Source: Hyphomicrobiales bacterium
Lineage (GTDB): Bacteria; Pseudomonadota; Alphaproteobacteria; Rhizobiales; Beijerinckiaceae
DNA: 64,000 nucleotides
Assembly (NCBI GenBank): GCA_900470775.1
Contig: UCBZ01000014.1
Location: 32,286 to 96,285, forward strand
Direction of reading: 5' to 3'
Below, in pieces: positions 17,171 to 18,886 of the stretch (position 1 is its first letter; each line of letters starts with the position of its first letter). The position numbers were made by a program, and so were the translations under genes. The notes beneath the pieces are model-generated. The model was not told the DNA's origin and made no database searches. It saw only the letters and a program-made list of their open reading frames with translations.

Positions 17171-17611
17171 ATGACAACGATGTCGCATTGGCGAAGCCTC
17201 GCGGCGGCAGCGCTGCTCTCCATTCTCGCGGCCTCGTCGTCGGTGGCGCAGGACGGCCGGCGCGTCAGCGTCACCGGCGAGATCAGCGACACCTGGTGCT
17301 CGATCAGCGGGCTGATGTTCGCCAAGGGCACGGCGCACCATCAATGCGCGGTCTGGTGCGCGCTCGGCGGCATTCCGGTCAGCATCCGCGATGCCACGGG
17401 CGACCTCTACCTCATCCTCAGGATCGGCGACGACGAGGACAGCGTCGCCAATCCCCGCATCGCGCGCATGGCGACGCATGAGGTCACCGTCGATGGTGAG
17501 CTGCTTGAGCGCGACGGGGTGAAATACCTGCTGGTCGACAAGATCGCCGACGACAAGGGCATCATCACGATGACCCATGACGAATACGGCATCCAGCCGT
17601 TCGGGAACTGA
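17171..17611 (+). CDS. Exported Cys-rich protein with HHxCxxxC motif (putative metal-binding, Sco-linked)
   Basis: The 146-aa protein has a signal peptide (about 1-27, cut after SSSVAQ) and a small beta-rich domain. The core pattern is VTGEISDTWC (C43), then HHQCAVWC (H56, H57, C59, C63), then GGIPVSI and a DLYLIL strand. The spacing of the cysteines and the VTG.I.D start match the next gene product, so the two are related paralogues. I recognise no named family. The paired Cys/His groups and the SCO1 gene two positions downstream suggest periplasmic copper or another thiophilic metal, or thiol redox chemistry (inference). ATG 17171 or 17180 could start translation. Confidence 0.7.
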   Translation: MTTMSHWRSLAAAALLSILAASSSVAQDGRRVSVTGEISDTWCSISGLMFAKGTAHHQCAVWCALGGIPVSIRDATGDLYLILRIGDDEDSVANPRIARMATHEVTVDGELLERDGVKYLLVDKIADDKGIITMTHDEYGIQPFGN

Positions 17612-17630
17612 GGTGATGAATGTCTCTCCA

Positions 17631-17746
17631 GCCCTCATCCTGAGGAGCGCTCCAGAGGAGCGCGTCTCGAAGGATGCTCCAGAAGGCTCCCGAACTATCT
17701 GGAACATCCTTCGAGACGCCGCTGCGCGGCTCCTCAGGATGAGGGC
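17631..17746. repeat. Palindromic repeat, family D, overlapping a gene start
   Basis: The 116-base element is bounded by perfect 18-base inverted ends, GCCCTCATCCTGAGGAGC at 17631-17648 and its complement at 17729-17746. A second nested pair (GTCTCGAAGGAT / ATCCTTCGAGAC) lies inside. The right end contains the ATG (17739) used here for the downstream exported protein. A shorter, diverged relative lies inside pdhS at 40005-40075. Confidence 0.85.
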
Positions 17747-18257
17747 TTTGGGGTTTGGCATCGGAACACTGGCGGTCCTTGTGCCCGTTGCCGCTCCCGC
17801 AGCCGAGCCCTGGGGCATCCCGCATGAGAAGCCGCTCGTGCTGAAGGGCCGGCTCGTCGATGCGCTGTGCCATCTGAAAGGGCGCTGCGCGCCCGATTGC
17901 GGTGCCGGCAAGCGCCAGCTCGGCCTCGTCCTCGCCGACGGCACGTTCCGGCTGATCGCCAAGGGCAATGTCGATTTCGCCGCCGCGATCCCCGATCTGA
18001 TCGGCTTCTGCGGCAAGGCGATCGAGGCCGACGGGCTTCTGATCGAGAACCCGGCCATTACCCTGTTCTTCGTCCAGGGCGTCCGCACCGAGGGCAACGC
18101 CGAACCCTTCGTTCCGGCCGAGCGCTTCAAGGCGGAATGGGAGGCGCGCAACGGCAAGGCCGAGGAATGGTGGCGCGCCGACCCGCAGGCCAATCGCATC
18201 ATCGCGGAAGACGGCCCCCTCGGCATCAAGGGCCTCGTGCCCAAGCCGAAGCCTTGA
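17739..18257 (+). CDS. Exported Cys-rich protein, paralogue of the upstream gene product
   Basis: The 172-aa protein has a clear signal peptide (1-22, ending APAAEP). The domain begins LKGRLVDALC (C44), followed by RCAPDC (C50, C54), a GLVLADGTFRLIA strand pair and GFCGKAIEADG (C91), which resembles the upstream protein in order and spacing. The C-terminal extension is Glu/Trp-rich. No named family is recognised. The start at 17739 lies in the end of a palindromic repeat. An in-frame ATG at 17616 would place translated repeat sequence ahead of the signal peptide, which is less likely. The SCO1 gene begins eight bases after its stop, so co-transcription is expected. Confidence 0.68.
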   Translation: MRALGFGIGTLAVLVPVAAPAAEPWGIPHEKPLVLKGRLVDALCHLKGRCAPDCGAGKRQLGLVLADGTFRLIAKGNVDFAAAIPDLIGFCGKAIEADGLLIENPAITLFFVQGVRTEGNAEPFVPAERFKAEWEARNGKAEEWWRADPQANRIIAEDGPLGIKGLVPKPKP

Positions 18258-18265
18258 GGCCAGGT

Positions 18266-18886
18266 ATGCCGGGGGTCGTCGCGCGTCGGTCGTTCCTGGC
18301 CGGGCTTGCCGGTTTCGCCGTCGCCTCCGCGCAAGCGCAGAGCCAGGGCGGGCATGTCCATGGCAGCGCCGCCTCAGCGACGCCCGATCCTCTCGCCGGG
18401 CGCTTCGGCGGACCGTTCTCGCTGACCGACCATACAGGCAAGGCCGTCAGCGACGAAGCCTATCGCGGCCGCTTCATGCTGGTCTATTTCGGCTTCACGC
18501 GCTGCACCGACACCTGCCCGATCGACCTGCCGACCATCGCCCAGACGCTCGACGCGCTCGCCCCCCTGGCGGAGCGCGTCGTTCCGCTCTTCATCACGGT
18601 CGATCCGGCTTTCGACACACCGCCGGTGCTGGCGGCCTATGTCGCCGCCTTCCATCCGGCGCTGGTCGGGCTGACCGGCAGCGAAGCTGACATTGCGGCT
18701 GCGGCGAAAGCCTACAAGGTCCATCGCCGCAAGCTGACGCAGCCTCATCATGGCCAAGGCGAATACGCGGTCGACCATGGCTCGCTGACCTATCTGATGG
18801 ATCGCCGGGGCCGTTTCCTGACCCTGCTGCCGCACAACACCGGGGCGCAGCGCATGGCGGCGGTGCTGCGCTCCTATCTGGCGTAG
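18266..18886 (+). CDS. SCO1/SenC family copper chaperone/thiol-redox protein
   Basis: The 206-aa thioredoxin-fold protein has the Sco metal site CTDTC (C80, C84) and the distant histidine in VDHGSLTYLM (H171). Sco proteins deliver copper to the CuA centre of cytochrome oxidase or reduce its cysteines. The N-terminus has an RRSFLAG twin-arginine-like export signal, suggesting folding before export. A His-rich GGHVHG stretch follows the signal. It is third in a cluster with two Cys-rich exported proteins, supporting a shared role in periplasmic metal delivery. No cytochrome oxidase gene is in the window. Confidence 0.88.
   Translation: MPGVVARRSFLAGLAGFAVASAQAQSQGGHVHGSAASATPDPLAGRFGGPFSLTDHTGKAVSDEAYRGRFMLVYFGFTRCTDTCPIDLPTIAQTLDALAPLAERVVPLFITVDPAFDTPPVLAAYVAAFHPALVGLTGSEADIAAAAKAYKVHRRKLTQPHHGQGEYAVDHGSLTYLMDRRGRFLTLLPHNTGAQRMAAVLRSYLA

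What the first reader, a model, noticed from the sequence alone, without database searches (positions are those of the whole stretch)
17171..18886. Two paralogous Cys-rich exported proteins in one cluster with a Sco chaperone
Both small proteins start their domain with V/L-x-G-x-(I/L)-x-D-x-x-C, then a CxxxC pair (C59/C63 and C50/C54), then a short strand-rich segment. One adds HH before its CxxxC. The third gene is a Sco protein (C80, C84, H171) with a twin-arginine-like signal. I recognise no named family for the first two. The set looks like a periplasmic copper or thiol relay not described under a known name. Basis: cysteine patterns seen; metal role inferred from Sco.
Basis: partly seen in the sequence, partly recalled or inferred. 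Interest (0 to 1): 0.72.

Follow-up and report, generated by a model that had tools for sequence, protein, structure and literature searches.

The report
Paired OB-fold proteins beside Sco chaperone
Bosea and many other alphaproteobacteria carry a conserved gene trio in which two related, unnamed small proteins, predicted to be exported and barrel-shaped and each with four nearly invariant cysteine or histidine residues, sit beside a branch of the copper-handling protein Sco that is their own, so the pair likely feeds copper or reducing power to Sco.

Summary
In detail: 17171-18886 holds two small predicted-exported proteins (P1, 146 aa; P2, 172 aa) and a Sco protein (206 aa, C80/C84/H171). 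P1 and P2 are remote paralogues (profile comparison E 1.5e-9; 1.3e-7 without signal peptides), both predicted OB folds; neither reaches a Pfam or NCBIfam cut-off. C-x12/16-H-x2-C-x3-C is kept in 104 of 105 distinct P1, four Cys in 102 of 103 distinct P2. Order P1-P2-Sco holds in 70 of 80 named loci (3 more end at the contig) and in 9 of 15 genomes of an even class sample, where P2 is adjacent in 15 of 15. The trio's Sco is a branch of its own (64 rows against 30, SH-aLRT 97). The same C-x12-H-x2-C-x3-C domain recurs in a second unnamed family, beside a ferric-reductase/Rieske protein in 13 of 13 loci tested. Best reading: an OB-fold, thiolate-type Cu(I) chaperone pair serving a dedicated Sco. 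Copper binding is inferred, not shown; a thiol relay or another metal remains open, and no client enzyme is identified. CuA oxidase presence does not track the trio within the genus. In 10 of 12 genomes without an adjacent Sco no trio-type Sco was found, so P1-P2 is the core.

The parts
17171..17611 (+). P1: small predicted-exported OB-fold protein (146 aa), C43-x12-H56-x2-C59-x3-C63
17297..17359 (+). P1 conserved C-x12-H-x2-C-x3-C stretch (codons C43 to C63)
17739..18257 (+). P2: small predicted-exported OB-fold protein (172 aa), four conserved Cys C44, C50, C54, C91, plus two predicted C-terminal helices
17868..18011 (+). P2 Cys stretch (codons C44 to C91)
18266..18886 (+). Sco/SenC protein (206 aa; PF02630), C80, C84, H171, twin-arginine-like signal, of a Sco branch found with this trio
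17630..17747 (.). dispersed palindromic repeat between P1 and P2; the P2 ATG (17739) lies in its right arm

Best explanation
The trio is a conserved, predicted periplasmic unit in which two paralogous, predicted OB-fold proteins likely bind Cu(I) through conserved Cys/His residues and would pass it to, or receive it from, a Sco protein of their own branch that would load a respiratory or other redox enzyme. Shown: gene order, paralogy, residue conservation and a separate Sco branch. Predicted: export and OB folds. Inferred: P1 uses C43, H56, C59 and C63 (a Cys3His site) and P2 uses C44, C50, C54 and C91 (a Cys4 site) as ligands. The pair is the core; Sco is the usual but not obligatory partner. 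The client enzyme is unknown.
For: Order P1-P2-Sco in 32 of 33 genomes (the window's own included) with strong hits to both genes among 101 searched; in the other, P2 lies at a contig edge. 70 of 80 named loci. Class sample: Sco adjacent in 9 of 15, P2 in 15 of 15. The trio's Sco separate as one side of a branch from 30 other Sco rows (SH-aLRT 97; 98 with more rows; 86 of the 94 rows differ), and 78 of 78 rows keep Cys, Cys and His, the copper ligands of Sco (PMC7558416, passages). Conserved metal-type residues in remote paralogues and, at identical C-x12-H-x2-C-x3-C spacing, in a third family (profile E 1.8e-12; 19 of 19; 120 of 120 listed). P1 has only three Cys, plus an invariant His, which suits metal binding better than a disulfide pair (inference). 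Two loci duplicate the P1-P2 pair as a unit before one Sco. Some neighbours are redox proteins: a heme-copper oxidase with cupredoxin in one genome, cytochromes c in a few loci.
Against: No metal or thiol chemistry is tested. Distances between the proposed ligands could not be measured, and the P1 model is only moderate over the motif loop (block means 68-71). P1-P2 lack an adjacent Sco in 6 of 15 class-sample genomes and 6 of 80 named loci (a seventh has neither P2 nor Sco); only 2 of 12 genomes without the adjacent gene carry this Sco branch elsewhere (three weaker Sco matches were not placed). No other gene family is widely linked: outside Bosea-type loci no neighbour cluster covers more than 9 of 61 loci, so no copper gene fixes the pathway. 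CuA oxidase does not track the trio. One P1 has Tyr for the first Cys and one P2 has Phe for C91.
Confidence: 0.5

Rival explanations
1. Thiol relay: P1 and P2 are reductants or thiol holdases that keep the Sco or client cysteines reduced, with the CxxxC pairs cycling between dithiol and disulfide.
For: Conserved paired Cys in both proteins; Sco has a thioredoxin-like fold and an oxidoreductase role has been proposed for it (PMC7558416, passages).
Against: No CxxC in either window protein and no thioredoxin fold: predicted OB folds. P1 has three Cys plus an invariant His. No further gene, a reductant or other, is widely linked (neighbours were not all named).
Confidence: 0.2
2. Electron-transfer or redox-sensing metalloproteins: the OB domain carries a non-copper centre (for example Zn, iron or iron-sulfur in a Cys3His site) that works with cytochromes or Rieske proteins, and Sco is needed only to mature a partner.
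For: The same motif domain follows a ferric-reductase-type membrane domain fused to a Rieske domain in 13 of 13 loci; cytochromes c or a cytochrome P460 domain occur beside some trios; the genes persist without this Sco branch.
Against: In the 80 named loci a filtered CxxCH search flagged 7 and the ferric-reductase/Rieske query touched 2, while 70 have Sco. Most P1 and P2 signals lack a twin-arginine-like motif (89 of 103 and 86 of 100 by a loose pattern), whereas exported iron-sulfur proteins usually use Tat (general knowledge).
Confidence: 0.2
3. Structural or non-metal role: OB domains that bind a ligand or partner protein, with the Cys/His residues kept for folding or disulfides.
For: OB folds commonly bind oligomers or proteins; most top Foldseek rows are nucleic-acid-binding proteins; weak matches to DUF4431 and DUF5818.
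Against: An invariant His at fixed spacing in two families and tight Sco linkage are not explained.
Confidence: 0.1

Closest known systems
CusF/SilF periplasmic Cu(I)/Ag(I) chaperones
   Same: Small periplasmic OB-fold proteins that bind Cu(I); the SilF paper calls SilF and CusF the only OB-fold proteins whose sole function is metal binding (PMC10656224, passages).
   Different: CusF/SilF-type ligands are His, Trp and two Met, and CusF feeds an efflux pump; P1/P2 have conserved Cys3His and Cys4 sets, come as a paralogous pair and lie beside Sco. No CusF-type Pfam hit (that Pfam holds such a family is recalled).
Sco with PCuAC pathway for oxidase copper sites
   Same: Sco partnered with soluble periplasmic proteins; Sco copper ligands conserved.
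   Different: PCuAC uses a Met/His motif; P1/P2 give no such Pfam hit. The trio's Sco is a separate branch, with a signal that looks cleavable by eye in the examples.
CutF-like proteins (near DUF2946)
   Same: Small exported alphaproteobacterial protein with an essential CxxxC motif needed for copper enzyme maturation (PMC8456105, passages).
   Different: 118 aa with a C-terminal proline-rich end, linked to multicopper oxidase; no DUF2946 hit for P1/P2; OB-fold is not a term of that paper (0 occurrences).
Pfam DUF4431 / DUF5818
   Same: Weak local match over the first strand of P1; DUF4431 reached E 0.01 in 15 of 62 P1 (best 3.2e-5), DUF5818 in 1 of 62.
   Different: The window protein scores 13.8 and 13.5 bits against cut-offs 24 and 27 over 10 and 16 residues; the H-x2-C-x3-C part is not covered. 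Bit scores of the other members were not shown.

Membership tests
Sco/SenC (PF02630) | Family profile match | tested here: met
   Third gene E 5.3e-47, 159.6 bits against cut-off 22.8
Sco/SenC (PF02630) | CxxxC plus distant His copper ligands | tested here: met
   C80, C84, H171; 78 of 78 trio-locus rows and 30 of 30 other rows keep all three
Sco/SenC (PF02630) | Single membrane anchor | tested here: inconclusive
   66 of 67 trio Sco have a hydrophobic segment; whether it is cleaved was judged by eye only
CusF/SilF | Exported small OB-fold protein | tested here: inconclusive
CusF/SilF | His-Trp-Met-Met ligand set and sequence match | tested here: not met
   Conserved set is C, H, C, C (P1) or four Cys (P2); no CusF-type Pfam hit
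PCuAC | Family profile match | tested here: not met
   No such hit in 62 P1 and 60 P2 at E 0.01
CutF/DUF2946 | Family profile match and C-terminal Pro-Pro motif | tested here: not met
   No DUF2946 hit; window P1 ends QPFGN and P2 KPKP, no Pro-Pro
Thioredoxin-like thiol oxidoreductase (P1, P2) | CxxC motif and thioredoxin fold | tested here: not met
   Only CxxxC present in the window proteins; predicted OB folds
Cu(I) chaperone (any) | Binds and transfers Cu(I) | not testable with these tools
   Needs purified protein

The most novel reading that the evidence does not exclude
P1, P2 and the Rieske-linked membrane protein found a new superfamily of OB-fold metalloproteins with a thiolate site (C-x12-H-x2-C-x3-C, or four Cys), and P1-P2-Sco is a third kind of bacterial copper delivery system beside the Cus and PCuAC routes.
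Probability: 0.4. Interest if true: 0.75.

Novelty: new variant of a known kind. Interest (0 to 1): 0.55.

Why it matters
How bacterial Sco receives copper, and whether it acts as copper donor or thiol reductant, is still argued (passages of PMC7558416). A Sco branch with two fixed small partners gives a compact genetic system in which that question could be asked directly. It also gives a motif and a predicted fold to families whose listed names are almost all 'hypothetical protein', including one tied to a ferric-reductase/Rieske membrane protein.

Tried and rejected

A cytochrome-oxidase-only role: COX2 occurs in 27 of 27 genus members with P1-P2 and in 19 of 20 sampled members without. Plasmid carriage: no match of P1 in 72,556 plasmid records. 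Promoters or terminators: none found. The G075 hit to P2 (E 8e-4) was set aside as chance: no P1 or Sco matched in the stretch fetched around it. The N-terminal half of the Rieske-linked protein against P2: score 21.1, best of 40 column shuffles 14.7, probability only 11%; suggestive, not used. The NPC-repeat cluster was considered as a clue to function; NPC-repeat genes lie near 8 of 80 trios. The 80 named loci are the best 80 of 365 and lean to close relatives; the class sample is the fairer count.

Literature: no description of these proteins or of the trio was met in searches of open-licence papers (listings; one search found nothing); that library lacks most subscription journals. Papers seen as passages only: PMC8456105, PMC10656224, PMC7558416.

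Full report
What is there. The window is from a Bosea-type genome (the named close relatives of P1 are mostly Bosea; 27 genomes of the same genus, the window's own included, have P1 and P2). Positions 17171-18886 hold three genes on the + strand: P1 (146 aa), P2 (172 aa) and Sco (206 aa). P2 and Sco are 8 bases apart; P1 and P2 are 127 bases apart, and most of that gap is a dispersed palindromic repeat (17630-17747) that occurs at 40 or more places in this genome (only 40 of 129 candidates scored). The gene divergently upstream I recognise from memory as pheS; a TIGR00730-type gene lies downstream. These flanks recur only among the Bosea-type loci L109-L127.

Families. In the window, P1 and P2 reach no curated cut-off in Pfam or NCBIfam. 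Over whole alignments at E 0.01, none of 60 P2 matched any Pfam family; of 62 P1, 15 matched DUF4431 (best E 3.2e-5) and 1 DUF5818. The database search found 1498 relatives of P1 and 100 of P2 at E 0.001. Sco is a clear PF02630 member.

P1 and P2 are paralogues. Profile-profile comparison aligns C43 with C44, C59 with C50 and C63 with C54 (P 96%, E 1.5e-9); with signal peptides cut off E is 1.3e-7. Both are predicted OB folds: P2 at pLDDT 90.7 (strands 30-41, 61-65, 70-75, 94-103, 108-117 with a helix at 84-90), P1 at 77.2 with lower confidence over residues 41-60. The top structural neighbours are mostly OB-fold proteins but weak.

Conserved residues. P1: C43, H56, C59, C63 are invariant in 62 of 62 aligned rows; the motif is present in 104 of 105 distinct copies among all loci held, with spacing x12 in 97 and x16 in 7; the exception (genome G466) has Tyr for C43 and ends early. 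P2: C44, C50, C54, C91 in 60 of 60 rows and, by a loose four-Cys pattern, in 102 of 103 distinct copies; the exception has Phe at 91. Among listed database proteins, 120 of 120 P1 and 98 of 100 P2 carry the motifs; of the two P2 misses one lacks its N-terminal part and one diverges after the third Cys.

Linkage. Of 101 genomes searched, 33 have strong hits to both P1 and P2 (a weak P2 hit in G075 and a weak P1-type hit in G084 are set aside); Sco is adjacent in 32, and in the other P2 lies at a contig edge. In 385 genomes drawn evenly from the class, 15 (own included) have a stand-alone P1; P2 is adjacent in 15 of 15 and Sco in 9 of 15. In 398 genomes drawn from the phylum, all 10 with a match belong to the window's own class. 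In 80 named loci (best 80 of 365), P2 is adjacent in 78 (one more ends at the contig, one lacks it), Sco in 70 (three more end at the contig, seven lack it). Outside Bosea-type loci no other neighbour cluster covers more than 9 of 61 loci. In two loci the pair is duplicated in tandem before a single Sco.

A Sco of its own. In a tree of 94 Sco rows (64 from trio loci after thinning Bosea; 30 others from genomes with and without the trio; 86 rows differ), trio Sco form one side of a branch (SH-aLRT 97, unrooted). With 28 Sco rows added from 12 genomes where no Sco lies beside P1, the split holds (98); in 2 of the 12 genomes (G388, G465) a trio-type Sco lies elsewhere, in the other 10 none of the placed rows is of that type (three weaker matches were not fetched or placed; one of the 10, the genome of L171, also has no detected P2 beside P1). 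So P1-P2 is the core and this Sco branch its usual partner. All 78 trio-locus Sco rows keep both Cys and the His.

A second setting for the domain. The weaker hits in the class sample are about 260-aa proteins with one hydrophobic N-terminal segment and a C-terminal P1-like domain (profile match to P1 E 1.8e-12). In 13 of 13 such loci (L080-L092) the gene directly upstream is homologous to the L058 protein that combines a ferric-reductase-type membrane domain with a Rieske domain; three further loci (L195-L197) were not checked for it, and L057 offers too little upstream sequence. C-x12-H-x2-C-x3-C is invariant in 19 of 19 and in 120 of 120 listed relatives of 1869 found. All names shown for these 120 are 'hypothetical protein' and no Pfam domain is listed. 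That two families so far apart keep exactly these four residues at the same spacing is the strongest sequence argument for a cofactor site.

Other neighbours. In one genome (G066) a heme-copper oxidase operon with COX2 and a cupredoxin ends about 2 kb upstream, with one gene on the other strand between. In the Paramagnetospirillum loci L173 and L174 a multiheme-type cytochrome gene lies downstream of P2 (directly in L173, about 2 kb on in L174) and no Sco; an NPC-repeat Cys-rich protein precedes P1 (Pfam for the L173 cytochrome). In five loci (L132, L148, L153, L155, L164) the trio sits among NPC-repeat proteins, an FGE-type protein and a sulphur-transport protein (named by Pfam in L132 and by clustering in the others); in L132 one NPC-repeat protein ends in a cytochrome P460 domain and a DUF302 protein is present. 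CxxCH-type genes were flagged in 7 of 80 loci; in L156, L183 and L184 they directly precede P1 (Pfam for L156 alone), and those of L114 and L163 look unrelated. All this fits extracytoplasmic redox or copper biology, but none is general.

Mechanism. OB-fold proteins whose sole function is metal binding are, according to the SilF paper, SilF and CusF (PMC10656224, passages); both bind Cu(I)/Ag(I) in the periplasm. Sco binds one copper through CxxxC and His and in bacteria takes part in copper handover with a soluble partner, PCuAC (PMC7558416, passages). By analogy P1 and P2 would be Cu(I) carriers with thiolate sites handing copper to or from their own Sco. This is inference. It leaves open which protein is first, why two are needed, and the client. 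CuA oxidase is an unlikely sole client, as subunit II occurs in 19 of 20 sampled genus members without the trio.

Verdict. Novel at the level of protein families and of Sco partnership; ordinary in that Sco-linked copper handling is a known kind.

Noticed in passing
window 17630-17747: Nested palindromic repeat (arms 19 nt at 100% and 22 nt at 95%) between P1 and P2, at 40 or more places in the genome; the P2 start codon lies in its right arm, and two related P2 proteins (P0131, P0145) begin with a similar read-through stretch.
   Followed up: partly
L058, L059, L080-L092: Unnamed approx. 260-aa family with a hydrophobic N-terminal segment and a P1-like C-terminal domain, next to a ferric-reductase/Rieske fusion gene.
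   Followed up: yes
L132, L148, L153, L155, L164: Trio inside a cluster with Cys-rich NPC-repeat proteins, an FGE-type and a sulphur-transport protein; in L132 also DUF302, and a cytochrome P460 domain ending one NPC-repeat protein.
   Followed up: partly
L172 5482-5907; L173 5701-5913: NPC-repeat Cys-rich small protein directly upstream of P1; the L173 one matches no Pfam family.
   Followed up: no
L061, L062 (the same genomes as L120, L127): Tandem duplication of the P1-P2 pair before one Sco.
   Followed up: partly
L054 1368-4400: Heme-copper oxidase operon (COX2, COX1, cupredoxin) upstream of the trio in one genome.
   Followed up: partly
L251 2375-2788: P1 with Tyr in place of the first conserved Cys and an early end, in a genome without an adjacent Sco.
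   Followed up: no
L161 4034-5644; L058 1488-3107: A Rieske/glutamate-synthase-like fusion gene lies upstream of P1 in one genome and near the Rieske-linked P1-like protein in another.
   Followed up: no
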